From positions 1,426,001 to 1,490,000 of the forward strand of contig NZ_CP027669.1 of NCBI RefSeq assembly GCF_003008595.1: a DNA stretch of 64,000 bases, given 5' to 3'. Made by a program: the position numbers and the translations under genes. Each line of letters starts with the position of its first letter. The first letter of the stretch is position 1. Shown one piece after another: positions 1,344 through 34,026 of this stretch. A model generated the notes under the pieces. The model was not told where the DNA came from, ran no database searches, and saw nothing but the letters and a program-made list of their open reading frames with translations. The stretch comes from Simplicispira suum. GTDB taxonomy: Bacteria; Pseudomonadota; Gammaproteobacteria; Burkholderiales; Burkholderiaceae_C.

Positions 1344-1754
1344 ATGAACATCGATAAATTCAAAGACCAGCATGTGCAAATCCTGCAAAAGCTGTCCATC
1401 CTGCGCGAGCTGACCCACGGGGGCGTCATTCAGAACGCCACGCAGATTGCGCGAAGCATCATGGACATGAGCAGCACCATCAAACTGCATCTCGCGGCCG
1501 AAGATATGGCGCTGTACCCGGCGCTGCAGCGCAGCGGCAATGCCGAATTAACGGCGATGTCCAACCAGTTGCAGAAAGACATGGGCGCCATCGCAGCGGC
1601 CTATGAGGCCTTTGCCAGGCAATGGAGCCAAGCAGAGCATTTGCGAAACGACGAGGCAGGGTTCCGCCGTGATGCCAACGAGGTATTGCGCACCTTGCAC
1701 CAACGCGTGCAAAGGGAAAACACAGATTTCTATCCCCGCATAGAAGCTCTGTGA
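1344..1754 (+). CDS. Hemerythrin HHE cation-binding domain protein
   Basis: 136-residue all-helical protein with the spaced His/Glu pattern of HHE domains: DQHV near residue 10, LHLAAEDMALYP in the middle and LHQRVQRENTDFYP near the C-terminus. Such domains bind a di-iron centre and are linked to oxygen or nitric-oxide sensing, storage or iron repair; the exact role here is unknown. The ATG at 1344 is chosen over one at 1326 because AAGGAAG lies a suitable distance before it. It is divergent from nrdD, so the pair may respond to oxygen together (inference). Confidence 0.8.
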   Translation: MNIDKFKDQHVQILQKLSILRELTHGGVIQNATQIARSIMDMSSTIKLHLAAEDMALYPALQRSGNAELTAMSNQLQKDMGAIAAAYEAFARQWSQAEHLRNDEAGFRRDANEVLRTLHQRVQRENTDFYPRIEAL

Positions 1755-2135
1755 TCGTCGGCTGCGGGCGCTGCGCAGCCAATCCCTGATGGCCAGTCCG
1801 CGTTTTGGCCATTCGCCGCACACAAGTGCTCTTGCCATCCTGCACTGGCGCGTCAGCGGCCCCCTCTCAGGGCGGACCCAGCCGCTGCACCAAGACCTGC
1901 TCCTGTGTACAGGCAAGCCAACAGCGCGCCTGGGGCACCAATTTTACTATTGATTTGATAGCTTTTAACGCATGCAATATAAGCGATGGATGCGTTCTGC
2001 ATCTAAACCACAACCCCCAACTTCCGCACGCCTACTGAGGAACTCCACAGTTGTTGCTTTGCCCTGTGGGGGGTAGCCTTGCGCTCCGCGCCCGGCAATG
2101 TCGTCTGGGCGACATATTCCTATAAAGAGACAAGC
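1755..2135. other. Intergenic stretch with one degenerate interspersed palindrome
   Basis: This 381-bp gap between the hemerythrin gene and the chemoreceptor has no convincing gene. At about 1957-1990 it holds a worn copy of the interspersed palindrome (gatagcttttaacgc followed by ataagcg). Nothing else is recognised apart from a purine-rich stretch (aaagaga) before the chemoreceptor start. Confidence 0.5.
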
Positions 2136-3758
2136 ATGCAAGTCATTTCTGTGCGCAGCCTGGCGGCGCGGCTCTCCCTGGGTTTTGGTGTCATTCTGGT
2201 ATTGCTGCTCGGCATGGCGGTGCTCTCCTTGCTGCGCATGCAGGCCTTGTCGGCCACGCTGGAGGAAATCACCGTGCACAACGCAGCGCGTTCGCAGACG
2301 CTCAACGTGATGGCGCGCAGCGTCTCGGGCTATGTGCAGGCGCTGGGCGACCTGGCCAGCACCGATCTCGAAGGCGGTCCGGCCGTGCTGGCACGGGTGC
2401 GCACCACGCTGGCGCAGTACGACGAGGCGCAGGCGCGGCTGGAAACCTTGCTTGCAGGCAACGCGCAGGCGTTGGCCTTGCTGGAGCCGGTCAAGACCTC
2501 TGGCAGCGCCGCGCGCGAGCTTCTGGCTCTGGGTGAGAAGCTGACTGCCGGACGGGGCGACGCCGCCATGGCTTTCCAGATGCGCAACGAATACGGCAAG
2601 GACACTGCGGCCTGGAGCGCACGCCAGCAAGCCTGGGGCCAGGCCGTGAATGCGCTGAGCGACTGGCAGGACGCTGCCAATGCCACCAGTTCGGCGCTGG
2701 CCACAGCCGACGCCCGCACGGCGCGCGTGCTGATCATCGTCGGCGCGCTGCTGGCCTTTGCCTTCGGCAGCGCCCTGGCCTGGTGGCTGGTGCGCGACAC
2801 CCGCGCCGCCGTGCGCGAGGCTGTCGAGGCCACTCGCCGCATGGCCCGCCACGACCTCTCGCAGCCCATCGACACGCACCGCCAGGACGAGATCGGAGGT
2901 CTGCTGGCGGCCCTGGAGACCATGCGCCAGAACCTGCTGGAACTGGCCACCGGAGTGCGCCAGGCGTCGGACGACATCAACAACGCCAGCGGTGAAATTG
3001 CCCAGGGCAGCCAGGACCTGAGCGACCGCACCGAAGAAGCCGCCAGCACGCTGGAAACCGCGCTGGCGTCGATTGCCCAGCTCACCACGTCGGTGCAGGA
3101 GACCACCGCCACAGCGCAGGAAACGCAAGCAATATCGACACAAACCAGCAGCGTGGCAGCACGCAGCGGCAGCGAAATGGGGCAGGTCGTCTCGACCATG
3201 CGCGAGATTGATGTGGCCTCGCACAAGATTTCCGACATCATTTCCATCATCGACGGCATCGCCTTCCAGACCAACATCCTGGCGCTCAACGCCGCCGTCG
3301 AAGCTGCCCGTGCGGGCGAACAAGGCCGGGGCTTTGCGGTGGTGGCGAGCGAGGTGCGCGCCCTGGCCGGCCGCAGCGCCGCCGCTGCCAAGGACATCAG
3401 CAGCCTCATCCACACTTCGCTGGCCAAGGTGGCCTCGGGCACGCAGCAGGTGGGCCGCGCCGGTCAGACCACTGCCGAGGTGACCTCCTCCGTCGAAACC
3501 GTCTCAGGCCGGATTTCTGCCATTGCCCAGGAGGTCAACCAGCAAATGGGGCGCATCGGCGAGGTGAATCAGTTTGTTGGCCAGCTCGACCAGATGGCGC
3601 ACCAAAACGCCGCCCTGGCCGAAGAATCGGCCGCCGCGGCCGCGTCGCTGCGCCAGCAGGCCAGCCAGTTGGGCTTGCTGGTGAGCAAGTTTGAACTGGG
3701 CCGGCCGCAAACGCCCCGTTCGGCCGCCCCGCGCAGGGCACTGCTGCCGAATGGCTGA
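2136..3758 (+). CDS. Methyl-accepting chemotaxis protein
   Basis: 540-residue transmembrane chemoreceptor. TM1 is about residues 14-36 and TM2 about 195-217, with a helical periplasmic sensor between them, then a HAMP segment ([16 protein letters not shown]) and the cytoplasmic signalling coiled coil. The hairpin tip is clearly visible ([20 protein letters not shown], then [15 protein letters not shown]). It should couple to CheA/CheW; the ligand cannot be read from sequence. No C-terminal CheR-docking pentapeptide is seen, the tail being Pro/Arg-rich. Start chosen at the ATG just before the TM1 signal, after aaagaga. Confidence 0.93.
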
Positions 3759-20331: not shown

Positions 20332-20754
20332 ATGAACATTCTTCTTGCTGTCGACGGCAGCGCCTATACGAAAAAAATGCTGGCCTACCTTGCGGCCCAC
20401 GACGAACTGCTGGGCAACAAGCACGAGTACAGCGTGATCACGGTGCAGGCCGAGCTGCCGGCCAGGGCGCGCGCGGCGCTGGGCAAGGAAGTCGTCGACA
20501 AGTACTACGCAGACCAGGCAGAAAAGGTGCTGGCTCCGGTTTCAAAGTTTCTTGAACGCAAGGGACTGGCGATCAAGCGCATCGTCAAGATCGGTCCGGC
20601 GGGTGCAAACATTGGCAAGGTCGCCGATGCCGGCAAATACGACCTGCTGGTCATGGGCTCGCACGGTCACGGCGCTCTCGCCACGCTGGTGATGGGTTCG
20701 GTCACCACGCAGGTACTTGCCAATAGCCGCGTGCCGGTGCTGATCGTGCGCTAG
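20332..20754 (+). CDS. Universal stress protein UspA family
   Basis: 140-residue single Usp domain: MNILLAVDGSAYTKKML at the start and the ATP-binding pattern GSHGHGALATLVMGSVTTQVL near the end (G-2x-G-9x-G-S/T). Proteins of this type bind ATP and help survival in stress or stationary phase. GGAGAAAC precedes the ATG. The TAG stop lies inside the left CTAG boundary of a 208-bp repeat element, so the gene is intact although an element sits exactly at its end. Confidence 0.93.
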   Translation: MNILLAVDGSAYTKKMLAYLAAHDELLGNKHEYSVITVQAELPARARAALGKEVVDKYYADQAEKVLAPVSKFLERKGLAIKRIVKIGPAGANIGKVADAGKYDLLVMGSHGHGALATLVMGSVTTQVLANSRVPVLIVR

Positions 20755-20958
20755 GAGGCTGTCGGACTTGGAGCGTCGAAAGCGAAAACCGAAGGTTTCG
20801 CCAAAATCGGCCCCAGCGAGGACAGTTTTTGCCGGATTTGCAGCCTCATAGCCCCGCTATGGGGCAAAAAGACGGCGTTCACGAAGAGCGGCGAAGCCAA
20901 AAATAGACCGCTGCGGTCGATTTGCAGCCGACGATTTCCAAGTCCGACAGCCTCCTAG
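20751..20958 (+). mobile_element. 208-bp MITE-like element, copy 1
   Basis: Non-coding element with 22-bp perfect terminal inverted repeats (ctaggaggctgtcggactt ... reading inward from both ends) and CTAG at both outer edges. It contains an inner hairpin (gcccc-gctat-ggggc). It differs from copy 2 at only four positions. No transposase frame is present, so it would need one in trans. The left CTAG contains the TAG stop of the universal stress gene. The 4-bp CTAG boundary fits the YTAR target preference of IS5-like elements (inference). Confidence 0.8.
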
Positions 20959-20982
20959 TGCTCGCCCGCTGCGCCGACTCGC

Positions 20983-21597
20983 TCAGCGGGCGCGCAGGCC
21001 GTCGAAACAGGTGCGCAGCACCAGATCGACGATTTCTTCGTCCTGGTAGAGGGCGCTGTCTTTCAGAAAACTCACCACCGGATCGCAGGCACGGGCATAC
21101 AGCGTGTAGAGCACCCCGATCGGCGGCAAATCGGGGTCGATCACGCCTTCGGCCTGCGCTTCGGTAATCCATTCGCCAATGATGTCGCTGACCTGGATGA
21201 CGCCGTCGGCGTAGCACTTGTTGGCCATCAGCACGCTGCGCAGCGTGGAGTTGCGGCTCGGCAGCAAAGGCATTTCCTGCGCCAGAAGGCGCTGCAGCGA
21301 CCAGCGCACCACGGCGCGCAGCTTGTCCACTGCGGGCAGGGATGGCTCCAAAGACGTCAAATACGTTTGTGCGGCGGACAGCACTTCCACCATGGCGGCG
21401 CTGCACAGCTCCTCCTTGCTGCCAAAGTGCTTGTACAGGCTGGCTTTGGCGATCCCCACCTTGCCGGCGACGTCGTCCATGGTCATGGCGTCGAACGACT
21501 TTTCGCCCAGCAAATCACAGGCCGATCGCAAGATGGCGTGTTCGCGGGCCTGGAGCATCTGCTCCTTGAAAGAAACTTTGGCAGGCGCTGGTTGCAT
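20983..21597 (-). CDS. TetR/AcrR-family regulator
   Basis: 204-residue repressor. The helix-turn-helix occupies residues about 18-65 (ILRSACDLLGEKSFDAMTMDDVA, GIAKASLYKHFGSKEEL); the rest is an all-helical ligand-binding domain. The target is unknown. A perfect 7-bp inverted repeat overlaps its start codon, which suggests autoregulation. It lies downstream of argP in the same direction with a weak hairpin between them. The 3' end lies 25 bp from a MITE-like element. Confidence 0.9.
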   Translation of the reverse strand: MQPAPAKVSFKEQMLQAREHAILRSACDLLGEKSFDAMTMDDVAGKVGIAKASLYKHFGSKEELCSAAMVEVLSAAQTYLTSLEPSLPAVDKLRAVVRWSLQRLLAQEMPLLPSRNSTLRSVLMANKCYADGVIQVSDIIGEWITEAQAEGVIDPDLPPIGVLYTLYARACDPVVSFLKDSALYQDEEIVDLVLRTCFDGLRAR

Positions 21598-21614
21598 AAC
21601 GCCTATCTTATGCA
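21593..21614. promoter_or_regulatory. Inverted repeat over the tetR start codon
   Basis: TGCATAA-N8-TTATGCA, a perfect 7-bp inverted repeat spanning the ATG (21595-21597) of the TetR gene. It is a good candidate autoregulatory operator. Confidence 0.5.
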
Positions 21615-21698
21615 GTCCGGTCGAAAATTAAATGCCTCAGTCACATAAAAACCTTGGGGTTTTCACTTGGCCTGTACGCTTCCTGCGTGCGTTCTGCG

Positions 21699-22607
21699 TC
21701 AGGTCAACGCCGCTGCCGCTCCGCTGATCAGGGCCTGCGTCAAGGTTTCCAGCACTGCAGACTCCAGGTTCCAGCAGTGCCAGTAGAGCGCGATGGACAG
21801 CGTCTGGCCGGGCGCCAGATCCACCAGCTGCCCTTCGGCCAGCGCGTCGCGCACCAATATTTCGGGCAGGATGGCCACCGCCCAGCCTGCCTGCACAGCA
21901 CGCAGTTGGCCCTCGGTGCTGGGCACGAACAACTGGTGCAGCGAGACCCGCTTGAGCCCGAAGGCGCGCGCGACAAACTCCACCGCCATGTCGTCCTTGC
22001 GATTGAAGGAGACGAAAGAGACTTCGCGAAAACTGTGCTGCGTGAGCCCGCGCGGCAGGCAGCGTGCGGCAAACTCGGCCTCGGCCACGGCCACGTAGCG
22101 CATGGAGCCCAGCGGCACCATGCGGCAGCCGCGCAAGGCTTGTTTGAGGGTGGTGACGCAGCCCAGCACCTGGCCCGAACGCAGCCACTCCTGCGTGAAA
22201 TCCTGGTCGTCGGCAATGATTTCCAGCGGCAGGCGTTGGCGTGCCAAGGGCCCCAGCGCGTCCAGCGCCCAGGTGGCGATGCTGTCGGCGTTAACGGCGA
22301 TGGCAATGCGCTCTTCCTCACGCCCTCCGCCCTGGGCGCTGGGCGCCAGCTCTTGCAGGTCGCGCTCGAGGTCGGCGCGCAGCAGCCGCATTTGCTTGGT
22401 GTGCTTGAGCAGCAACTGCCCCGAACTGGTGGGCCGCAACGGGCGACTGCGCACGATCAGCACCGATCCCACTTGGGCTTCCAGCGCCCGAAGGCGCTGC
22501 GAGACGGCCGATTGTGTGACGTTGAGGCGCTGCGCCGCACGTTCAAAACCGCCCTCTTCGACGATGGCCGCCAGGCATTCAAGTGCAATCGGATCGAAAG
22601 TGCTCAT
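21699..22607 (-). CDS. argP: ArgP/LysG-type LysR regulator
   Basis: 302-residue LysR regulator of the ArgP (IciA) subfamily, which senses lysine/arginine and controls a basic amino-acid exporter. N-terminal wHTH at residues about 4-62 (LECLAAIVEEGGFERAAQRL, VTQSAVSQRLRALE) and the ArgP-like SRPLRPTSSGQLLLKH follow. The usual divergent lysE/argO exporter is not adjacent; instead a LivJ-like binding protein lies upstream in the same direction. A candidate operator is found 27 bp before its start. Confidence 0.88.
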   Translation of the reverse strand: MSTFDPIALECLAAIVEEGGFERAAQRLNVTQSAVSQRLRALEAQVGSVLIVRSRPLRPTSSGQLLLKHTKQMRLLRADLERDLQELAPSAQGGGREEERIAIAVNADSIATWALDALGPLARQRLPLEIIADDQDFTQEWLRSGQVLGCVTTLKQALRGCRMVPLGSMRYVAVAEAEFAARCLPRGLTQHSFREVSFVSFNRKDDMAVEFVARAFGLKRVSLHQLFVPSTEGQLRAVQAGWAVAILPEILVRDALAEGQLVDLAPGQTLSIALYWHCWNLESAVLETLTQALISGAAAALT

Positions 22608-22633
22608 GGGAATCCCGCCATCAGAAAAATGAG

Positions 22634-22654
22634 GTTATCCGATGATTAGATAAC
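22634..22654. promoter_or_regulatory. LysR-type operator candidate upstream of argP
   Basis: GTTATC-N9-GATAAC is a perfect inverted repeat that contains a T-N11-A core, the usual LysR motif. It sits 27 bp before the argP start and probably mediates autoregulation. Confidence 0.55.
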
Positions 22655-22735
22655 AACGCTCATCTTTCGATTTTGAATTCCCCTGCCTCCACCCGGTCAC
22701 TGCCCCTTGGCCGGTCACCGGCCAGGAGCTACGAC

Positions 22736-23947
22736 CTACTTCTTGCGCTGGACGATGAGGTTGCGCCGGGCGTCTTCGGGGTAGGCGAAGGTGATGCCGC
22801 CGCCCTGGACCTTGCCCATGACCAGCATGTTCGCCGTCAGCGCATCTTTGTCGTCTTTGCTGAAGGGGCGTTCATAGGTCGCAACCACGCCGTAATAGAC
22901 CCTCGGAATGTTCTCTAATGCTGTCTTCATGGCCGGGCCGCCCAGCTTGCCATCGCGAATTCCGAGCAGCGCATAGGTGAACAGGTACACCGCGTCGTAG
23001 CCCTGCGCTGCAGCCATGGGAACCACCATGCGCCCGCCCCATTTGCGTGCATAGGCGCTCAGGAACGCAGCGCGGCGCTCGTTGCTGGGCTCGGCGATGA
23101 ATGTCTGCGCCATCAGCGCCCCATCGGCCGCCTCGCGCGCTCCGTCAATAAAGAACGGAAACGAGAGTGGCCAAGCCCCGACTTGCGGCACCTTCCAGCC
23201 CAGATCGCGCCGCCCATTGGCAATGGCTGCATTCTCCGGCCCCACGGTGTAGCTGAAGACGACATTGGCACCCGCATCGCGTGCCACCTTGAGTTGCTCG
23301 CGCAGATCCGTCACGCCCAAAGGAAACCGGGTCACATTCACCGGCCGCAATTGGTGTGCGCTCAAGGCTGCCTCCACATCCTTCAGGCCGGCCTCACCAT
23401 AGCCGGTGGTGTCGGCAAAGATGGCTACCTTGGTCCAGCCCCGCTTGACCAGATCGTTCACGACAAAGGGGGCCTGAATGCTGTCGCGCGCCGAGGTCCG
23501 AAAAATATAGCTCTCGGCCGCAGGGTATTTGCTGGTCAGCGGCGTGCCGGTGGCGCAGGGAATGATCAAAGGACTTTTGGCGTTCTGGAATACTTCCAGC
23601 GATTTTTGAGCAACGCCCGTGTTACAGAAGCCGATGGTGCCAACCACCCCCGCGTCCAGCAATTCATGCGCCGCCTTCAGACCGACATCGGGCGTGCCCT
23701 GGTCGTCCCGCACGACCAGTTCCAGGGGCCGTCCGAGGTAGCCCCCCACCGCATTGATTTCATCGACGGCCAGCTGGATGCCTTGCAGCAGGGGTTTGCC
23801 AAAATCCGACGAGGCGCCAGTGAACGGGCCGATCACACCGAGTTTGACAGCGGCAGGAGCCTGGGCAAAGCCGATCAGGGGCAGCGCCGCGCAGACGGTC
23901 ACCAGACTGGCGCGCAGACTGCTCATGAGCTTGGAAACAAAATTCAT
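22736..23947 (-). CDS. LivJ-like periplasmic substrate-binding protein (orphan)
   Basis: 403-residue exported binding protein of the branched-chain amino-acid ABC type (type I periplasmic-binding fold). Signal peptide about 1-30, cleavage near GFAQA. LGVIGPFTGASSDFGKPLLQG is the classical N-terminal pattern; the IFADTTGYGEAGLKD and VVFSYTVGPENAAI stretches belong to the second lobe. No permease or ATPase gene is adjacent, so it must work with components encoded elsewhere or be a sensor. The ligand is not predictable; family members bind amino acids, amides or aromatic acids. Confidence 0.9.
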   Translation of the reverse strand: MNFVSKLMSSLRASLVTVCAALPLIGFAQAPAAVKLGVIGPFTGASSDFGKPLLQGIQLAVDEINAVGGYLGRPLELVVRDDQGTPDVGLKAAHELLDAGVVGTIGFCNTGVAQKSLEVFQNAKSPLIIPCATGTPLTSKYPAAESYIFRTSARDSIQAPFVVNDLVKRGWTKVAIFADTTGYGEAGLKDVEAALSAHQLRPVNVTRFPLGVTDLREQLKVARDAGANVVFSYTVGPENAAIANGRRDLGWKVPQVGAWPLSFPFFIDGAREAADGALMAQTFIAEPSNERRAAFLSAYARKWGGRMVVPMAAAQGYDAVYLFTYALLGIRDGKLGGPAMKTALENIPRVYYGVVATYERPFSKDDKDALTANMLVMGKVQGGGITFAYPEDARRNLIVQRKK

Positions 23948-24067
23948 GGTCTCTCCCTCAATGCGGCAAACCGCTGTTTAGAGGAAGAGGATGAAACAGA
24001 ACACCAGGCCGCGTTTTCGGCGTTTACCCTGTGCTGGCAACGACCTGTCAGCAATCCGAAAGACTGA

Positions 24068-25006
24068 TCAGGAGGCCGGATCCGCCTTGCTACGCTCCTT
24101 GCCTCGCGCCTCGCGCACGTCGCTCGGCAGGCGCACATCCATCCAGCGCAGCAGATCGGCCCACATGTCGCGCTGCTCGGCCTCTTTGGGCATGCGCAAG
24201 GCATTCGGTAACTCGATAGTCACCACCGGCAGACCTTTTTGCAAACCGCCGAAGTGGCCCAGAGAGCCAGGAAACACGCCGACTTGCTCCAGCCGCAGCG
24301 CGCCCAACTGGCGCGGCGGTGTGACGGGGCCGTCAAAATCAAGCACCCCATACGGCGCGTGAATACTGACCACCAGTTGGGGTTCAAAGCGCTCGACCTG
24401 ATCGTTCAGAAAACGCGTTTCGGGCTCGGACAGCGCTTGCGTCCCGGGCCAGCGCCGAGGGTCTTTTCGGGCGCGCGTTTTCCAATGCAAGGGGGCATCG
24501 TGGTCCCAGCCCGGCGTGCGGAAATTGCGATTCAGATCCACCCCCTTCGCATTGGTCCGCTGGGGTCTTCGCGCGAGCAAGCCATCTGGATTCGCCACGG
24601 GAACAAAGCGCCAGTGCACGTCGCGTGGGGCTCGGCCGGCCAGTGCAATCCAGCGCATTGCAAGCGCGCCCGCCGTCAGCTCGTCACCATGAATCGCTCC
24701 GATCACCAACACCCGCAAGGGCTCCGCAGACGCCTTTCCTTCAGGGGCCTTGCTGACCACGTCGCGCCAGTACAAAGGCACGCCCTTGCGCGAGTACGCG
24801 CCGCTCTCTTCCAGTTGCGCCGCCTCGCAGTTGGCGCGCGAAACGCCGGGCAGGCGCGGCGCCAACAACGTACAGGCCACCGACGCAGGCGGCAAAGGCA
24901 ACCGTGGCTCGGCAGCCGCCAGAGCACCGATCATCGCCAACGACAAGGCGCCCAGGCTTCGCAGCGCCCGATGCAGCGCAGCGCAGGCCCAACCCCGCCG
25001 AGTCAA
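24068..25006 (-). CDS. M14-family zinc carboxypeptidase / murein peptide amidase-like
   Basis: 312-residue metallopeptidase if the TTG at 25006 is the start, which gives a signal peptide (RSLGALSLAMIGALAAAEP). The M14 zinc motif is GAIHGDEL (HxxE), the third ligand is the His in VVSIHAPYG, VDLNRNF holds the substrate-binding Asn-Arg, and the catalytic Glu is in VVTIELPN. This resembles MpaA-type murein tripeptide amidases, but with export. The frame stays open upstream to an ATG at 25180, so the start is uncertain. The TTG overlaps the stop of a 50-codon frame (TTGA). Confidence 0.82.
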   Translation of the reverse strand: MTRRGWACAALHRALRSLGALSLAMIGALAAAEPRLPLPPASVACTLLAPRLPGVSRANCEAAQLEESGAYSRKGVPLYWRDVVSKAPEGKASAEPLRVLVIGAIHGDELTAGALAMRWIALAGRAPRDVHWRFVPVANPDGLLARRPQRTNAKGVDLNRNFRTPGWDHDAPLHWKTRARKDPRRWPGTQALSEPETRFLNDQVERFEPQLVVSIHAPYGVLDFDGPVTPPRQLGALRLEQVGVFPGSLGHFGGLQKGLPVVTIELPNALRMPKEAEQRDMWADLLRWMDVRLPSDVREARGKERSKADPAS

Positions 25007-25155
25007 TGCAGCACCCAAGGCGGAGCCAGCGGACGCAGAGCGCTGGCAAGAGTTTCTACTTGCGGAGAAAAACAAAGGTGGCCGCCATCGGCATCCTGCA
25101 ACATGAGCAGGGTGGGGCCGCAGTCCAGGGCGGTGAACATGGGGATCAAAGACAT
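25003..25155 (-). CDS. Possible small protein (50 residues) coupled to the carboxypeptidase gene
   Basis: An open frame starting MSLIPMFTALDCG and ending RPLAPPWVLH. Its TGA overlaps the likely TTG start of the carboxypeptidase, which would couple their translation. No strong ribosome binding site is seen and I do not recognise the sequence. It may be a leader peptide or a chance frame. Confidence 0.3.
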   Translation of the reverse strand: MSLIPMFTALDCGPTLLMLQDADGGHLCFSPQVETLASALRPLAPPWVLH

Positions 25156-25242
25156 CAATGGGGAGCCGGCGCCGCAGCACCGTGCGCAGCGCGATTTCAA
25201 GCGGGGCACCATAATATCCCGCTCTGCCCGTTTTCGTCCCCA

Positions 25243-25752
25243 GTGCCGCTTCTTCTCAAGCCCCGCCCTCCCAGTTTCTCCACACGCGAGTTCCGCTCCG
25301 CGCTCGGCATGTTTGCCACCGGAGTCACCATCGTCACCGCAAGGGCGGCCGACGGGCATCTGGTGGGCCTGACAGCCAATTCCTTCAACTCGGTGTCGCT
25401 GAATCCTCCGCTGGTTTTGTGGAGTCTGGCGCGCATTGCCGCTTCCATGGCCGCACTCTCGGCCGGCTCGCACTATGCGATCAACGTGCTCGCGGCCGAC
25501 CAGCAGGCCTTGGCAGAGCAATTTGCCGCGCGCGGGGTGGATCGCTGGGCTGGCGTGAGCCACGTGCCCGGCGTTGCGGGCGCGCCCTTGCTGGTAGGGG
25601 CAGTGGCGAGCTTTGAATGCTTCAATCGCAGCCGCTACGAAGAAGGCGACCACGTGATATTTGTCGGCCAGGTGGAGCGCTGTACCCATCGCGCCGGCGC
25701 CGCGCCGCTGCTCTACCACGGCGGGCGGTTCTTTACCGAACACCCGTTGTAG
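25243..25752 (+). CDS. Flavin reductase domain protein
   Basis: 169-residue FMN-binding split-barrel protein: FRSALGMFATGVTIVTARAADGHLVGLTANSF at the N-terminal half, SLNPPLVLWSL, then INVLAADQQALAEQFA and the closing LLYHGGRF. It reduces FMN/FAD with NAD(P)H, typically supplying a monooxygenase or acting alone. The GTG at 25243 gives the shortest frame that keeps the domain complete; no ATG is suitably placed. No oxygenase partner is next to it. Confidence 0.88.
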   Translation: MPLLLKPRPPSFSTREFRSALGMFATGVTIVTARAADGHLVGLTANSFNSVSLNPPLVLWSLARIAASMAALSAGSHYAINVLAADQQALAEQFAARGVDRWAGVSHVPGVAGAPLLVGAVASFECFNRSRYEEGDHVIFVGQVERCTHRAGAAPLLYHGGRFFTEHPL

Positions 25753-25835
25753 GTGGGGCGCCTCCCGGAGGCATCTTCGGCGCTGTCCCCACCTTCTCTC
25801 ACTGCGGGCACCGGGAACGCCGCAAGGCAACTGAC

Positions 25836-25866
25836 GAAAAAAGCGGGACCGCAGCCCCGCTTTTTC
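25836..25866. terminator. Bidirectional terminator between flavin reductase and dctM
   Basis: gaaaaaagcggg ... cccgctttttc forms a GC stem flanked by A and T runs. It lies between converging genes and can end both transcripts. Confidence 0.8.
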
Positions 25867-25883
25867 TTTCCCGACAGTGAGGC

Positions 25884-27167
25884 TCAATTTCCCATGAGCA
25901 AGTTCGGCAAGAACAGGCTGATCTGCGGGATGTAGGTGACCATCACCAAGAATATCAACAGTACCGAGAGCCAAGGGAGCGCCGCCCTGGTCACTTGCAC
26001 CAGGTTCATGCCAGTGACCCCCGCCGTAACAAACAGGTTCAGTCCCACAGGCGGTGTCACCATGCCGATCTCCATGTTCACCACCATGATAATGCCCAGG
26101 TGAATCGGGTCGATGCCGAGTTGCGTGGCGATGGGGAAGAAGATCGGCGCCAGAATCAGGATGATGCCCGTGGGCTCCATGAAGTTGCCCGCGATCAAGA
26201 GGATCACGTTCACCACCACAAGAAACATCCACGGCGCCATGCCCATGCCGACGATCTGTTCGGCAATGGTCTGCGGAATGCGCTCGGTGGTCAGCACGTG
26301 GGCAAACAGCAAGGCGTTGGCCACGATGAACATCAGCATCACGGTGGTGCGTCCGGCTTCCAGGAAGACATGCGGAAGGTCCTTGAAACCCAGGTCGCGG
26401 TAAATGAACACAGCGACGAACAAGGCGTACACAGCGGATACGGCTGCCGCTTCGGTGGGCGTGAAGATCCCGCCGTAGATACCGCCCATGATGATGACCA
26501 GAAGCGCCAGGCCCCACATGGACTCGCGCAGCGCGCGCAGCACCTCGCCCATGCTGGCCTTAGGCGGCGGCGTGGTCTTGAGTTTGCCCGCACGCCACCA
26601 GACGGCGGTCATCAACATCAGTCCCAGTACCAATCCTGGAACCACACCGGCGAGAAATATGCGGCCCACCGAAACTTCGGTGATGGCGGCATAGACCACC
26701 ATCACGATGGACGGTGGAATCAAAATACCCAGGGTTCCGGCGTTGCAGATGACGCCCGCGCCAAACTCCATCGGGTAACCGTTTTTCACCATGCCTGCGA
26801 TCACGATGGAGCCGATGGCCACCACCGTGGCGGGGCTGGAGCCCGACACCGCCGCAAACAGCATGCAAGCGAGCACCGAGGCGATGGCGAGGCCGCCTCG
26901 CAGATGCCCGACAGCGGCGATGGCAAAGTTCACCATGCGCTTGGCGACGCCACCGGTAGACATCAACACGCCCGCCAGAACGAAAAACGGGATTGCCAGC
27001 AGCGTGTAGTGCTCGCTGGTCTCGAACATCTTGATCGTCATGCTCGCCAGGGAGTCCGGCGAGAAGAAAACGATGGTAACGATGCTCGAGAGCCCAAGGC
27101 TGATCGCAATCGGCATACCGATCGCCATACAGAAAAACAGCAGCGCAAACAGTACCAGCGTGTTCAT
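25884..27167 (-). CDS. dctM: TRAP transporter large permease (DctM type)
   Basis: 427-residue inner-membrane protein with about 12 TM helices, the channel-forming subunit of a TRAP transporter driven by a sodium or proton gradient. SGSSPATVVAIGSI, GVICNAGTLGILIPPSI and the C-terminal VTPPVGLNLFVTAG are family signatures. Its start overlaps the dctQ stop by four bases (ATGA), so translation is coupled. The C4-dicarboxylate assignment rests on resemblance of the set and the DctSR-like regulators, not on tested specificity. Confidence 0.95.
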   Translation of the reverse strand: MNTLVLFALLFFCMAIGMPIAISLGLSSIVTIVFFSPDSLASMTIKMFETSEHYTLLAIPFFVLAGVLMSTGGVAKRMVNFAIAAVGHLRGGLAIASVLACMLFAAVSGSSPATVVAIGSIVIAGMVKNGYPMEFGAGVICNAGTLGILIPPSIVMVVYAAITEVSVGRIFLAGVVPGLVLGLMLMTAVWWRAGKLKTTPPPKASMGEVLRALRESMWGLALLVIIMGGIYGGIFTPTEAAAVSAVYALFVAVFIYRDLGFKDLPHVFLEAGRTTVMLMFIVANALLFAHVLTTERIPQTIAEQIVGMGMAPWMFLVVVNVILLIAGNFMEPTGIILILAPIFFPIATQLGIDPIHLGIIMVVNMEIGMVTPPVGLNLFVTAGVTGMNLVQVTRAALPWLSVLLIFLVMVTYIPQISLFLPNLLMGN

Positions 27168-27691
27168 ACGTCATCCTCCTTGGCCTTCAGGCTCATCGCC
27201 TCGGCAGCTTCATCGGCAAGGCGCAAACCTTCGCTGCGGCCAGTCACCAGGTCGTAGAGGATCTGAAGAAACCGAAAGGCAGTCAGCGCCATCCCCACCG
27301 GCATGACCGCCAGCACAACCCAGCGCTCGATGGGCATGTCTTCCAGTTCGATGCCAACCTGCTTCATCTTGAGCACATACTCCATCGAGCCGGTAAAGAC
27401 AAAGCCGACATACAACAAGCACAGCAAGGTGGCGAGGATGCCCACCACGCGCACCTGGCGCGAAGGCAGCAATTTAACGAGTGCGTCCACACCGATATGC
27501 GAACTCACGCGCACGCCATAGGGCACCCCGATGAAGATCATGACGGCAAAGAACACTGTGGTCAGTTCCAGCGCCCAGGAAAGGCCGCTGTTGAACACGT
27601 AGCGCAGAACCACTTGGTAGAAGGTCAGGCCGGTCATGGCCAGCAGCATGAGCGAAATGATCCACTCTTCAAGACGGTCAAAAAATTTCAT
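27164..27691 (-). CDS. dctQ: TRAP transporter small permease (DctQ type)
   Basis: 175-residue, four-TM inner-membrane protein (LMLLAMTGLTFYQVVLRYVF, ELTTVFFAVMIFIGVPYGVR with HIGVDAL). It partners DctM and receives the binding protein. It follows dctP after a 64-bp gap that holds a terminator-like hairpin, and overlaps dctM. The hairpin should lower dctQM expression relative to dctP. Confidence 0.93.
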   Translation of the reverse strand: MKFFDRLEEWIISLMLLAMTGLTFYQVVLRYVFNSGLSWALELTTVFFAVMIFIGVPYGVRVSSHIGVDALVKLLPSRQVRVVGILATLLCLLYVGFVFTGSMEYVLKMKQVGIELEDMPIERWVVLAVMPVGMALTAFRFLQILYDLVTGRSEGLRLADEAAEAMSLKAKEDDV

Positions 27692-27704
27692 GGGGTAGCT
27701 CCAA

Positions 27705-27731
27705 AAAAAGCCCCGGTTTTGCCGGGGCTTG
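27705..27731 (-). terminator. Attenuator-like hairpin between dctP and dctQ
   Basis: On the minus strand: AAGCCCCGGC-AAAA-CCGGGGCTT followed by T residues. It lies between the binding-protein gene and the permease genes, as expected for a partial terminator that raises the dctP:dctQM ratio. Confidence 0.8.
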
Positions 27732-27755
27732 CAGCTGTGATGGTGCCGTAGCGTT

Positions 27756-29887
<2,132 letters not shown>

Positions 29888-29926
29888 GCCGCTATGCTAC
29901 GGCGAGGCGAGAGCCCCAACACTCCC

Positions 29927-31966
29927 ATGCAACCCTTGCCACGCACGCCGCCGCTTGACTTCGCCCTGCTGCAGCAGACCCCGTCCGGACAGGCGCCGCG
30001 CGGGCGTCGCACGCTGTGGTGGCTGCTGGGGCTGCTGCTTCTGGTGGTGGCCTCGGTGGTGGCGCTGGTGCTGTATCTCAACGCTTTCGAGCACGAAGAA
30101 GAAGAGCGCCGCCGTGTCTCGGACGGCCAGTGGCTGGAGCAAAGCGTGCGCTTTCACTTTGTGCGGTTGGAGGAAGATCTGCGGGTGCTGGCCCGGCAGG
30201 CGCTGCAACGCCCCGATGTCAGCCCCCGCGCCGCGCCCAGCGTACAAGGAGGGCTGCTGTGGAACCAGCCCGGCGCCATTCTCTGGCACGGCTGGCAGGC
30301 TTACGACCCGGATCAGCCTGGAGCCAACCAACCCGAGGACCTGCGCCAGGCGCGTGCCGCCAACCCCTGGAACGACGAAGCGCTGTCGAGCATGCTCGAC
30401 ATTGCCGTCGGCCTGCGCCGCTCCAGCTATGCCGGCCCGCTGCGCGACGCACAAGGCAATGCCACCGACGTCGTGTGGCTGGCCGTACCTTATTTCGAAC
30501 GCGGCGAGTTTTTGGGCAACTACCTGGCGGCGCTGTCGATGAAGGCCTGCGTGGACGGGCTGGTGCCCGCCTGGTTTCATCAAACGCACCGGGTGCGTCT
30601 GGCCGATGACCCGGCGCTGGCACCCGTATCGCAGCAAAGTTCTGCCTATGCGCCTTACCTCGCAGCGATGAATCTTCCCGGCACCGACATGTTCATCGAG
30701 ATTGCGCCGCTGCGCGCGCAGCCGGCCATGGTGCCGCGCCTGTTTCTCACGGTGGCGCTGCTGTTTCTGGCTGGCATGCTGGTCAGCTTGCTGGCCTTGC
30801 GGCGCGACATCGGCAAGCGCCAACGCGTGCAGGCGCTGCTGCAGGCCCAGATGGTGCTGCGCACGGCCATGGAGGATTCGGTCACCATCGGCATGCGCGC
30901 CTGGGCCCCCGACGGACAGATTTTGTACGTGAACGAAGCCTTTTGCCGCATGGTGGGCTACAGCACCGCCGAACTGGTAGGCCGCCGCGCACCCATGCCG
31001 TACTGGCCGGCCAACCGTGCCGACGAAATCAACGTGATGCACCAGGACGTGATTGCGCAGGGAACGCGCAGCGAAGGCCTGGAGGTGCAGTTCCAGCACC
31101 GCGACGGTCACCTGGTAGACGTGTTGATCCACGAAGCGCCGCTGGCCACCGCCAGCGGCGAACCGGTGGGCTGGATGAGTTCTGTTCTGGACATTAGCGA
31201 GAAGAAGCGCGCCGAGCGACTGGCTGCACAGCAGCAAGAACGCCTGGAGGCGTCTGGGCGCCTGGTGGCGGTGGGCGAAGCCGCATCCACGCTGGCACAC
31301 GAACTCAACCAACCGCTGGGCGCGCTGAGCAGCTTTGCCCATGGCTTGCTCAACCGATTGAAAAGCCGCAGCGTCACGGCCGACGAGATTGAACGCGTAG
31401 TGCAACGCATGGCGCGCCTGTCGGACAAGGCGGGGGGCATCATCCAGCGTGTCAACGCCTTTGCGCGGCGGCGCGAACTGGTCCTGGCGCCGGTAGACCT
31501 GGCCCGTTTCGTGCAGCGCTGCATCGCCAGCCATCCGCGCGCCGATGCGGTGCGCGTGGAATGGTCGGCCACACCGGGTGGCGTTTGGGTGCAAGCCGAC
31601 GAGCTGCTGCTCGAACATGTGCTGAACAACCTGCTTGCCAACGCCTGCGCCTGGTCTGTGCACAGCGGCAAGCCGGCGCGGGTGCGCGTCTCGCTGGCCT
31701 GCGCGCACGCAGAGCGCATGGCGAGCGTCTCGGTAGCCGACAACGGGCCCGGCGTGGCCGAGGCAGACCGCGAACAAATTTTCAACGCCTTCTTCAGCAC
31801 ACAGGAAGGCGGAATGGGCATGGGCCTGGCCATTTGCCGCTCCATCGTCGAAGCACACCACGGGCGCATCGAAGTGGGACGCGACCCCGAACTGGGCGGC
31901 GCCCGGTTCACGGTCTGGCTGCCGCTGGTGCCGAGCGCAGCCGCTGGAACCAAAGAAACGACATGA
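29927..31966 (+). CDS. PAS sensor histidine kinase (DctS/DctB-like)
   Basis: 679-residue membrane kinase. TM1 about residues 26-48 (WWLLGLLLLVVASVVALVLYL), a periplasmic sensor of roughly 210 residues, TM2 about 270-290, a PAS domain (VTIGMRAWAPDGQILYVNEAF), a dimerisation/phosphoacceptor helix with H458 in LAHELNQPLG, then the ATPase domain with N (LLANACAW), G1 (VADNGPGV) and G2 (GMGMGLAI) boxes. The stop overlaps the regulator start (ATGA). The start at 29927 leaves room for a promoter between it and the divergent binding-protein gene; an ATG at 29894 does not. Confidence 0.92.
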   Translation: MQPLPRTPPLDFALLQQTPSGQAPRGRRTLWWLLGLLLLVVASVVALVLYLNAFEHEEEERRRVSDGQWLEQSVRFHFVRLEEDLRVLARQALQRPDVSPRAAPSVQGGLLWNQPGAILWHGWQAYDPDQPGANQPEDLRQARAANPWNDEALSSMLDIAVGLRRSSYAGPLRDAQGNATDVVWLAVPYFERGEFLGNYLAALSMKACVDGLVPAWFHQTHRVRLADDPALAPVSQQSSAYAPYLAAMNLPGTDMFIEIAPLRAQPAMVPRLFLTVALLFLAGMLVSLLALRRDIGKRQRVQALLQAQMVLRTAMEDSVTIGMRAWAPDGQILYVNEAFCRMVGYSTAELVGRRAPMPYWPANRADEINVMHQDVIAQGTRSEGLEVQFQHRDGHLVDVLIHEAPLATASGEPVGWMSSVLDISEKKRAERLAAQQQERLEASGRLVAVGEAASTLAHELNQPLGALSSFAHGLLNRLKSRSVTADEIERVVQRMARLSDKAGGIIQRVNAFARRRELVLAPVDLARFVQRCIASHPRADAVRVEWSATPGGVWVQADELLLEHVLNNLLANACAWSVHSGKPARVRVSLACAHAERMASVSVADNGPGVAEADREQIFNAFFSTQEGGMGMGLAICRSIVEAHHGRIEVGRDPELGGARFTVWLPLVPSAAAGTKETT

Positions 31967-32610
31967 ACCGCATCGCCATCCATATCGTTGACGACGACGC
32001 CGACGTGCGCGACGGCCTGGCCTGGCTGTTCGATTCGCGTGGCTACCACGCGGCCACCTGGTCGGGCGGTGACGCTTTCCTGCACGGCATCGGCAAGCTG
32101 GCACCCGACTGGGACCACGCCGTGGTGCTGATGGACATCCGCATGGAGCCGCTCTCGGGCCTGGCCACGTTCGAGCGCCTGCAGCAAATGGGCTGTCCAT
32201 GGCCAGTGCTGTTTCTCACCGGGCACGGCGACGTGGGCATGGCCGTGGCAGCCGTCAAGAACGGGGCCTGGGATTTTCTGGAAAAACCCTTTCAGGACAA
32301 CCTGCTGGTGGACCGCATCGAGCAGGCCCTGGCCGCCGCCAGCGCGCAGCGCGCCACCGACCTGCAGACCCAGCGCCTGCGCGCCGCACTGGCCAGCCTG
32401 AGTCAGCGCGAGCGCGAGGTGCTGGCCGAGCTGATCCGCGGCCACTACAACAAGACCATTGCCGACCATCTGGGCATCACCCAGCGCACAGTGGAGTTTC
32501 ACCGAGCCAATATTTTCAACAAGCTGGGCGTGCAATCGGCGATCGAACTGGCGCACCAACTGGGCCGGCTTGGTGCCTTGCCGGGAACGTCCGGCGAAAG
32601 CACGGAATGA
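31963..32610 (+). CDS. LuxR/FixJ-type response regulator (DctR-like)
   Basis: 215-residue response regulator: receiver domain residues 1-125 with phosphorylatable D58 (VLMDIRMEPLSG), acidic pocket DDD near residue 10 and Lys in LEKPF; C-terminal LuxR-type HTH from about 145 (LSQREREVLAELIRGHYNKTIADHLGITQRTVEFHRANIF). Coupled to the kinase gene by an ATGA overlap. In Rhodobacter a similar DctS/DctR pair controls dctPQM, which lies just across the divergent region here, so dctPQM is the likely target. Confidence 0.92.
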   Translation: MNRIAIHIVDDDADVRDGLAWLFDSRGYHAATWSGGDAFLHGIGKLAPDWDHAVVLMDIRMEPLSGLATFERLQQMGCPWPVLFLTGHGDVGMAVAAVKNGAWDFLEKPFQDNLLVDRIEQALAAASAQRATDLQTQRLRAALASLSQREREVLAELIRGHYNKTIADHLGITQRTVEFHRANIFNKLGVQSAIELAHQLGRLGALPGTSGESTE

Positions 32611-32743
32611 CGCCCGAAGCGAGGCAAAACAAGTCCCTGCGCTGTACTGCGGCAAACCCGCCCGTTTTTGACAAGCTGGCTCAGGATGAAAAAATGGGCG
32701 CGATTGCCTTTGCGCGAACTGCCCCCTCTTGACCTGGAGCCCC

Positions 32744-33199
32744 ATGATCCGATTGAAATCGCTGCCTTCCCTCTTCACCGCTCTGGCCCTGCTGGCCTGC
32801 AGCGCCGCCGTAAGCGCCCGCGACATGGTGGCGGTCAACCGTCCCGAGATCAACATGCGCTCGGGCGCAGGCACCCAGCACGAAGCGCTGTGGGTCCTCA
32901 GCCGCGGTTATCCACTGGAAGTTCTTGGGCGCAAGGGCAAATGGCTCAAGGTGCGCGATTTTGAAAATGACCGGGGCTGGGTCTACCGGCCGCTGACCAG
33001 CACGCGCACGCCACACCACGTTGTCAAGGTCCATGTGCTGAACATTCGCAGCGCCCCCAGCCTCAAGAGCCGCGTGCTGGCCAAGGCCGCACGCGGCGAG
33101 ATTCTCAAAACCCTGGAGCGCAAGCGCGACTGGGTCAAGATCAAACAGGAAGGCGGCCCCACCGGCTGGGTGTCGAGGCGACTCGTGTGGGGCTGGTAG
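32744..33199 (+). CDS. Secreted SH3-domain protein
   Basis: 151-residue exported protein. Signal peptide about 1-25 (LFTALALLACSAAVSA), followed by two bacterial SH3-like repeats: residues about 30-85 (VNRPEINMRSGAGTQHEALWVL) and 92-150 (VHVLNIRSAPSLKSRVLAKAA ... GWVSRRLVWGW). Such domains bind cell-wall peptides. The cysteine in LLACSAA could be read as a weak lipobox. CTGGAG precedes the ATG. Its 3' end overlaps the MOSC gene by 13 bp. Confidence 0.87.
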   Translation: MIRLKSLPSLFTALALLACSAAVSARDMVAVNRPEINMRSGAGTQHEALWVLSRGYPLEVLGRKGKWLKVRDFENDRGWVYRPLTSTRTPHHVVKVHVLNIRSAPSLKSRVLAKAARGEILKTLERKRDWVKIKQEGGPTGWVSRRLVWGW

Positions 33200-33822
33200 C
33201 GCCGCAGCCCGCGCAAGCGCCACACGCTGCGCACCCAGCGCCGCGCCTGCGCGTGCTCAGCCTCAACATCGGCCGCTGCCAGCGCCTGCACATTGGCGAG
33301 CGCAGTGTGCTCTCTGGCATAGGCAAGCGCCCGGTGAGCGGGCCCATGGCCGTGGCGCGTCTGGGCCTGGAAGGGGACGAGCAAGCCGACCTCAGCGCGC
33401 ACGGCGGCCTGGACAAGGCGGTCTACGCCTACCCGGCGCAGCACTACGCGTTCTGGCACGACGCGCGCCGACAGCGCGGCTTGGGTCTGCCGGACGAAAC
33501 ACTGCCGCCAGGGTTCATGGGCGAGAACCTCACGGTGGAGGGTTTGCTGGAGAGCGAGGTGTATGTGGGTGACCGCCTGCATTTCCCCCACTGCGTGCTG
33601 CGCGTCACCGCGCCGCGCGAGCCCTGCTACAAGTTCGATGCCGTCATGGGTTTCGCACTGGCCGGGCGCACCATGGCGCGGGCGGGAAACTGCGGCTACT
33701 ACCTGGCTGTGGACCAGCCAGGGAGCATTGCGGCAGGACAAGAGGCCTGGCTGCAGCCTGGCCAGCGGGCGCTGAGCATTGCGCAGGCGATCGCTGGCAA
33801 GTGGGCCAAACACGCACGCTAG
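33187..33822 (+). CDS. MOSC-domain protein (YiiM-like)
   Basis: 211-residue protein with the MOSC fold linked to molybdenum-cofactor or sulfur-carrier chemistry: LGLEGDEQADLSAHGGLDKAVYAYP, the FMGENLTVEG motif, the conserved cysteine in REPCYKF, and a C-terminal three-helix extension as in YiiM, a hydroxylaminopurine-reducing type. It starts with GTG within the end of the SH3 gene. Its TAG stop forms part of the left CTAG boundary of MITE-like copy 2. Confidence 0.88.
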   Translation: MGLVAPQPAQAPHAAHPAPRLRVLSLNIGRCQRLHIGERSVLSGIGKRPVSGPMAVARLGLEGDEQADLSAHGGLDKAVYAYPAQHYAFWHDARRQRGLGLPDETLPPGFMGENLTVEGLLESEVYVGDRLHFPHCVLRVTAPREPCYKFDAVMGFALAGRTMARAGNCGYYLAVDQPGSIAAGQEAWLQPGQRALSIAQAIAGKWAKHAR

Positions 33823-34026
33823 GAGGCTGTCGGACTTGGAGCGTCGAAAGCGAAAACCGAAGGTTTCACCAAAATCGGCCCCAGCGAGGACAGTTTTTGC
33901 CGGATTTGCAGCCTCATAGCCCCGCTATGGGGCAAAAAGACGGTGTTCTCGAAGAGCGGCGAAGCCAAAAATGGACCGCTGCGGTCGATTTGCAGCCGAC
34001 GATTTCCAAGTCCGACAGCCTCCTAG
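33819..34026 (+). mobile_element. 208-bp MITE-like element, copy 2
   Basis: Same length and orientation as copy 1 at 20751, differing at four positions (about 98% identity). The 22-bp terminal inverted repeats are perfect, and CTAG lies at both edges. The left CTAG contains the stop codon of the MOSC gene. Short reading frames across it are artefacts. Confidence 0.8.

What the first reader, a model, noticed from the sequence alone, without database searches (positions are those of the whole stretch)
20751..34026. Twin 208-bp MITE-like elements that reuse the stop codon of the gene they insert behind
Copies at 20751-20958 and 33819-34026 have equal length, differ at four positions and have perfect 22-bp terminal inverted repeats. 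Each is flanked by CTAG. In both cases the left CTAG contains the TAG stop of the upstream gene (universal stress protein and MOSC protein), and both host genes end in CGC TAG. CTAG is rare in bacterial coding DNA except at amber stops, so an element targeting CTAG would land at gene ends without damage. That is a neat insertion strategy, and the inverted repeats may also end transcripts.
Basis: partly seen in the sequence, partly recalled or inferred. Interest (0 to 1): 0.75.

Follow-up and report, generated by a model that had tools for sequence, protein, structure and literature searches.

The report
Structured mobile element behind stop codons
The two repeats are copies of a small mobile DNA element, found in bacteria assigned to several phyla, that probably borrows the enzyme of a known transposon family, inserts at CTAG (often the end of a gene) and carries a fold that evolution preserves on one strand, for a purpose still unknown.

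Summary
In detail: two 208-bp copies, four differences, perfect 22-bp inverted ends that include CTAG, each behind a CGC-TAG stop (Usp and MOSC genes). The genome has six copies. A relative without the element has CGC TAG at the MOSC stop, so that stop most likely came first. Of 139 classified copies 44 lie on a stop codon, against 22 of 360 other CTAG sites in the same loci. Target choice plus selection can explain this: 16 complete IS1182 copies with the same ends gave 1. The duplicated target is more likely TA inside CTAG than CTAG itself.

The larger finding is inside the element. The 208-bp form is an expanded version of a roughly 169-bp family found in assemblies of several phyla. Its core has a conserved fold with strong compensatory change in two separate alignments, better on one strand, and the Rfam searches run gave no match. 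The same core occurs behind three classes of ends; two match, and the third resembles, ends of different IS1182-family transposons, which lack the core. So it looks like a structured non-autonomous element that changes ends to use different IS1182 transposases. Movement, and what the fold does, are not shown.

The parts
20751..20958 (+). Element copy 1 (208-bp form, CTAG at both ends included); + is the strand with the conserved fold
   Evidence: (R1 110.8 bits on +, 50.5 on -)
33819..34026 (+). Element copy 2 (208-bp form)
   Evidence: (R1 112.3 bits on +, 51.0 on -)
20751..20772 (+). Left terminal inverted repeat of copy 1, CTAG included; the TAG is the Usp stop
20937..20958 (-). Right terminal inverted repeat of copy 1
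33819..33840 (+). Left terminal inverted repeat of copy 2; the TAG is the MOSC stop
34005..34026 (-). Right terminal inverted repeat of copy 2
20785..20802 (+). First extra segment (18 nt) of the 208-bp form against the 169-nt form; contains a C-GAA-G mini-hairpin
   Evidence: alignment and sequence; boundaries ambiguous by a few bases
20878..20898 (+). Second extra segment (21 nt) of the 208-bp form; contains a GGC-GAA-GCC mini-hairpin
   Evidence: alignment and sequence
33853..33870 (+). First extra segment in copy 2
   Evidence: sequence, by analogy with copy 1
33946..33966 (+). Second extra segment in copy 2
   Evidence: sequence, by analogy with copy 1
20332..20754 (+). Usp gene, stop shared with the left CTAG of copy 1
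33187..33822 (+). MOSC gene, stop shared with the left CTAG of copy 2

Best explanation
The two repeats are copies of a non-autonomous, structured mobile element (a MITE) moved in trans by transposases of the IS1182 family. It inserts at TA within CTAG. CTAG is about tenfold rarer than expected in the window, and only half of the CTAG sites in the loci studied lie inside genes although genes cover about 80% of positions. An insertion in a CTAG that holds a stop leaves the reading frame intact, so surviving copies gather at gene ends. The typical element is about 169 bp: terminal repeats that match a partner IS1182 clade, around a core of about 127 nt. The core folds into one long imperfect hairpin whose mostly unpaired stretches are conserved and whose stems are kept by compensatory change, with a preference for one strand. 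Shown by sequence: copies, ends, empty sites, stop-codon excess, covariation, strand asymmetry, core shared across three end classes. Inferred: mobilisation by IS1182, the TA duplication, and selection on the fold as RNA or single-stranded DNA. What the fold does is unknown; since copies at stops show no orientation bias to host genes, I think it serves the element (recognition, or persistence in the cell) rather than the host.
For: IS1182 link: the transposase on contig C3 of the same genome matches NF033551 (361 bits, cut-off 270) and keeps one end with these repeats. Of 31 transposase loci from two searches, 19 have both class-1 ends, 18 of those 19 with CTA outside both; 3 have one end and 9 none. 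A pattern scan blind to transposases also reached IS1182 genes in 3 of 119 stretches. Core and ends: a model of the core alone, built from 37 class-1 elements, finds all 11 class-2/3 elements of A3. An IS1182 copy in G395 has class-2 ends and six of 12 IS1182 loci examined de novo have ends that resemble class 3. The core is absent from 38 IS1182 loci, some partial (E up to 1). Fold: covariation 0.402 against 0.149 +/- 0.007 shuffled in 40 sequences, 0.545 against 0.199 +/- 0.008 in 46 others. Strand: G-U 112 against A-C 35 cells, and 149 against 49; lower RNA energy on the plus strand in 36 of 40 and 46 of 46. Stop excess. Empty sites. Spread: 49 of 299 genomes of the phylum, 9 of 12 genomes chosen because they held an end pattern, 7 of 148 of the Nitrospirales carrier's phylum.
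Against: Most carriers lack a matching IS: of 20 element-bearing genomes, 9 had any IS1182 match at E 1e-30 and only G395 had one with matching ends; in 60 genomes, the window's own included, only that one had a close class-1 transposase, besides a 41% one in G012. The class-3 likeness was judged by eye, and one of the two class-3 elements departs at 3 of 11 positions. Movement was not observed. In both alignments the structure was derived from the rows it was tested on, and rows share ancestry, so shuffle results are not probabilities. Orientation of A3 rows was chosen by model score, which leans to the plus strand. The strand gap also appears with DNA parameters (37 of 40, 46 of 46), so RNA and single-stranded DNA are not told apart. 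Two of 40 rows of A1 (L226) were probably reversed. No promoter-like site was found in or beside the window copies. Stop calls rest on my own simple gene caller; one of three sites checked that it called inside a gene looks intergenic. Several carriers outside Pseudomonadota are metagenome assemblies.
Confidence: 0.72

Rival explanations
1. Ordinary MITE: an internal-deletion product of a resident IS1182 copy, with the fold a mere by-product of long inverted repeats.
For: Same ends and target as IS1182; MITEs are commonly held to derive from IS (passages of PMC10969869).
Against: The core model has no match in 38 IS1182 loci; in 27 IS1182 loci the full model finds two adjacent elements and otherwise only weak matches of at most 15.9 bits. 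The core is shared across three end classes and several phyla, and covariation and strand asymmetry reach into the core.
Confidence: 0.12
2. The element is kept because its RNA helps the host: a 3' UTR stabiliser, processing site or terminator behind genes.
For: Both window copies lie sense behind genes; 44 of 139 copies sit at a stop codon, more than intergenic CTAG sites would give; tandem neighbours are sense in 36 and antisense in 23, a weak lean.
Against: No orientation bias at stops (23 sense, 18 antisense, p 0.53); intergenic copies are nearest a gene's 5' end in 43 of 75; no terminator-like site on the sense strand of the window copies.
Confidence: 0.13
3. The covariation is mutational: template switching between the arms repeatedly copies one arm onto the other (quasi-palindrome correction), with no selection on a fold.
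For: The element is a long imperfect palindrome.
Against: Stretches that the consensus folds leave mostly unpaired are among the most conserved, G-U cells exceed A-C cells about threefold, and in the core-only search 41 of 47 sources match but only 4 of 46 matches are on the weaker strand.
Confidence: 0.08
4. Another family that duplicates TA in CTAG, such as IS630, moves the element, and the likeness to IS1182 ends is secondary.
For: TA in CTAG is, from memory, the site of IS630; 11 of 20 carriers had no IS1182 match at all.
Against: Two end classes match and a third resembles ends of IS1182 clades; a scan blind to transposases led to IS1182. IS630 genes were not searched for.
Confidence: 0.09
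5. Stem-loop replacement as described for IS1272 of the IS1182 family: the element replaces a palindrome and leaves no duplication.
For: IS1272 targets inverted repeats without duplication (abstract and passages of PMC5678879); one IS1182 copy, L364, sits in the middle of a palindrome.
Against: Flanks of the elements are not palindromic beyond CTAG: 0 of 139 sites with 6 or more of 8 complementary, against 6 of 360 background sites; the two closest empty sites align with no gap at the junction (L380 and L381).
Confidence: 0.05

Closest known systems
ERIC elements (enterobacterial repetitive intergenic consensus)
   Same: Short palindromic mobile repeat, TA duplication, stable RNA fold, sometimes at gene 3' ends (passages of PMC10969869, PMC2229807 and PMC2759123)
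   Different: ERIC is 127 bp and described there from Enterobacteriaceae and Vibrionaceae; here about 169 bp, CTAG choice, IS1182 ends, several phyla, exchangeable ends
Correia/NEMIS and RUP elements
   Same: MITEs with TA at the termini; RUP matched to a partner IS by its ends (passages of PMC2229807)
   Different: One genus or species each; partner IS630-Spn1 for RUP; other lengths. Sequences were not compared
YPAL / RU-2 of Yersinia
   Same: 168 bp, palindromic, intergenic (passages)
   Different: No TA at the termini, inverted repeats internal, duplications of 3 to 26 bp; sequence relation judged by eye only
IS1182 family, including IS1272
   Same: Terminal repeats and CTAG choice of some of its clades
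   Different: IS1182 copies carry a transposase and lack the structured core; IS1272 replaces stem-loops

Membership tests
MITE (miniature inverted-repeat transposable element) | Short, with terminal inverted repeats | tested here: met
   22-bp repeats, 208 bp; 167-169 bp in 109 of 151 hits carried
MITE (miniature inverted-repeat transposable element) | No coding capacity | tested here: inconclusive
   Longest frame wholly inside copy 1 is 49 aa, on the - strand; conservation of frames not tested
MITE (miniature inverted-repeat transposable element) | Many dispersed copies and empty sites in relatives | tested here: met
MITE (miniature inverted-repeat transposable element) | Ends match an autonomous element | tested here: met
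   IS1182-family elements; but only 1 of 20 other carriers tested holds one with matching ends
MITE (miniature inverted-repeat transposable element) | Derived from the partner IS by internal deletion (not always required) | tested here: not met
   no core match in 38 IS1182 loci
MITE (miniature inverted-repeat transposable element) | Mobilised in trans | not testable with these tools
   needs a transposition assay
IS1182 family (partner transposase) | Transposase matches the curated model above cut-off | tested here: met
   361 bits, cut-off 270, for the copy in the window's genome
IS1182 family (partner transposase) | CTAG at both ends of full copies with these repeats | tested here: met
   15 of 16; CTA outside both ends in 18 of 19
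Known structured RNA family (Rfam 15) | Match to a curated model | tested here: not met
   No hit over either window copy at E up to 10; none at gathering score in 10 loci; in 8 loci at E up to 1 one sub-threshold miRNA hit, outside the element
ERIC | Sequence homology to the ERIC consensus | not tested
   No ERIC sequence was compared

The most novel reading that the evidence does not exclude
A structured single-stranded module, RNA or single-stranded DNA, is itself the persistent genetic unit. It has spread across phyla by exchanging its ends to fit different IS1182 transposases, and its fold acts in its own mobility or survival rather than for the host: a modular, structure-based parasite of DNA transposons.
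Probability: 0.4. Interest if true: 0.88.

Novelty: new variant of a known kind. Interest (0 to 1): 0.7.

Why it matters
The bacterial MITE families in the review passages I read are each reported from one species up to, at most, members of one class, and MITEs are thought to be leftovers of their IS. Here a non-autonomous element keeps a base-paired, strand-preferring fold in assemblies of several phyla, with exchangeable ends. If the fold works in transposition, it would show a DNA transposase system that depends on structure and a new way for a parasite to outlive its helper. If it works as RNA, a large RNA family that the Rfam searches did not recognise sits on mobile DNA in many environmental bacteria. 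The stop-codon excess gives a clean case of target choice plus selection producing harmless insertions.

Tried and rejected
Rejected: a bias to one replication strand (flank GC skew in element orientation positive in 60 of 130, p 0.43). Rejected: palindromic targets beyond CTAG. No clear extended target motif. No match in the plasmid and phage collections. Internal promoter or sense-strand terminator in the window copies: none by consensus scan. Literature: ten searches, two of them empty; I saw titles and abstract starts, and passages of six papers (abstract of one), and recognised none as describing this element. One search for the end sequences gave 11 papers, none about a repeat element by title and abstract start. 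The search for IS1182 with CTAG gave 2 papers, seen only as a listing. Subscription journals and preprints were not held.

Dropped rows: 82 elements were extracted, 65 usable by length and letters, 41 kept at under 93% identity, 40 used in A1, L243 left out because its inside did not align. The core alignment A4 uses 37 of those 40, without L186 and the two L226 copies. From I carried 151 hits; hits cut by a contig end and the shortest and weakest ones were left out. 6 of 151 were dropped as having flanks identical to another copy, one of them the window genome's own copy at 3349056, and 6 of the remaining 145 lay too near a locus end; 6 of 47 sources gave no core match (L243 and five weak roughly 190-bp hits from the Nitrospirales carrier's phylum). 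The IS1182 context count uses 16 of the 19 two-ended copies.
Full report
Observation. Both copies are present as described: 208 bp each, four differences, perfect 22-bp terminal inverted repeats that include the CTAG. The upstream genes end in the left CTAG and are Usp and MOSC by Pfam. Both copies lie between convergent genes by my gene calls.

Copies. The window's genome, unnamed, has six copies, 208, 208, 208, 191, 166 and 167 bp long in the DNA match. The genus is probably Simplicispira, since a contig of same-genus G007 has the length of a Simplicispira hankyongi contig; this is inference. Of 60 genomes, the window's own included, 17 have matches. The G000 copy at 3349056 and a copy in G018 share flanks but are 208 and 187 bp, so length changes in place.

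Partner transposon. A transposase on contig C3 of the same genome scores 361 bits with the IS1182 model, cut-off 270, and one end with these repeats remains. Among 31 transposase loci, 19 have both class-1 ends, 3 one and 9 none; 18 of the 19 have CTA outside both. In L108 and L109 an element sits directly beside an IS1182 copy, sharing its CTAG. A scan for the 21-base end alone also reached IS1182 genes in assemblies named Actinomycetes, Gammaproteobacteria and Desulfuromonadaceae, 3 of 119 stretches. Against this, 20 other carriers tested gave 9 with any IS1182 match and one, G395, with matching ends.

Target. At the MOSC site G007 has CGC TAG with no element, and G017 has a TAG stop after CGA. 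At the Usp site four relatives have TGA or TAA at that place. At the G004 site in L281 the empty relatives read CTAC and the filled ends CTAG and TTAC; at L282 empty CCAG and filled TTAG and CTAG. Over 145 copies the outer base of the four departs from C or G 20 times and the inner base 4 times (my count; p 0.0015 if copies are independent). I therefore favour a TA duplication with choice of CTAG, but clean CTAG sites cannot tell the two apart.

Stop codons. With a simple codon-based gene caller (coding fraction 0.80), 139 of 145 copies were classified: 44 at a stop codon, 20 inside a gene call, 75 intergenic. Background CTAG sites in the same loci: 22, 179 and 159 of 360. Fisher p is 1.3e-12 for stops against the rest and 7.6e-7 against intergenic only; with CTAG at both ends, 32 of 77 are at stops. 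Merging copies with like flanks leaves 42, 19 and 73 of 134, p 3.8e-12 and 1.2e-6. Sense and antisense are 23 and 18 (p 0.53), with 3 both. Sixteen IS1182 copies gave 1 stop, 5 inside and 10 intergenic (Fisher p 0.04 against elements). I read this as insertion at CTAG followed by selection; why stops also exceed intergenic sites is not fully explained.

Fold. Forty diverse elements gave a 54-pair consensus, 36 pairs with changes on both sides. Covariation was 0.402 against 0.149 +/- 0.007 for shuffles and at most 0.115 for slid partners; 94.4% of cells paired against 80.0%. A second set of 46, found by the model but aligned without it, gave 40 of 52 pairs with double changes and 0.545 against 0.199 +/- 0.008 and at most 0.162. 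In both, the structure came from the alignment it was tested on. In pairs that are mostly Watson-Crick, G-U exceeded A-C 112 to 35 and 149 to 49; the plus strand folded better in 36 of 40 and 46 of 46. DNA parameters agree, so this does not separate RNA from single-stranded DNA. Rfam gave no family.

Exchange of ends. Of the 46, 35 have class-1 ends, 9 class 2 and 2 class 3. Class-2 ends match an IS1182 copy in G395, which also holds a class-2 element, L278. Class-3 ends resemble those of six IS1182 loci in other genomes; this likeness was judged by eye. A model of the core without ends, trained on class 1 only, found all 11 others at 53 to 87 bits and found nothing in 38 IS1182 loci.

Spread. 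Matches occur in 49 of 299 genomes drawn from the phylum. In 12 genomes chosen because they held an end pattern, 9 match: strongly in assemblies named Nitrospirales (two), Nitrospinaceae, Geobacteraceae, Mariprofundaceae and Saccharospirillum, more weakly in Verrucomicrobiia, Nitrospirae and Spirochaetes (best E 1.5e-15, 4.1e-12 and 9.2e-10); those of Desulfuromonadaceae, Actinomycetes and Planctomycetota do not. The matches counted there, up to 127 in one genome, include both strands of one element. In the Nitrospirales carrier's phylum 7 of 148 match, the carrier included, four of them weakly.

Judgement. It is a MITE by anatomy, with IS1182 as the most likely helper. What sets it apart is the shared core, the strand-preferring fold, the exchange of ends and the reach across phyla. 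The function of the fold is the open question. Confidence was lowered from 0.75 to 0.72 on checking, because the class-3 match is only a resemblance.

Noticed in passing
L364 (G395), flanks of the IS1182 copy at 1358-3074: This IS1182 copy lies in the middle of a perfect palindrome of its flanks, unlike the other 16 copies compared.
   Followed up: partly
Ends of copies in all groups: Decayed ends change mostly at T and A of CTAG (CCAG, CTGG), which is what very-short-patch repair of CTAGG might give (recalled, not tested).
   Followed up: no
window 20785-20802, 20878-20898 and the same in copy 2: The extra segments of the long forms are small hairpins with GAA loops closed by C-G; a different insert in L152 and L231 has the same motif.
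   Followed up: no
L085, 4464-4482: In G016 an open frame that looks like a shikimate kinase (by eye) runs into a lone end and stops at its CTAG, so the end supplies the last codons.
   Followed up: no
G000 C1:1530340-1530469, C1:1664719-1664848, C3:60412-60541: A repeated stretch abuts the end of the element in L006 and lies within a few bases of the end of a truncated IS1182 copy, as if another mobile element prefers these ends.
   Followed up: no
G738, G771, G773, G785: Four genomes of the Nitrospirales carrier's phylum have weak matches of about 190 bp (49 to 55 bits) that the core model missed, perhaps a distant subfamily.
   Followed up: partly
L243, 5408-5576: A Spirochaetes assembly has the same ends and length around an inside that does not align, perhaps an independent element.
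   Followed up: no
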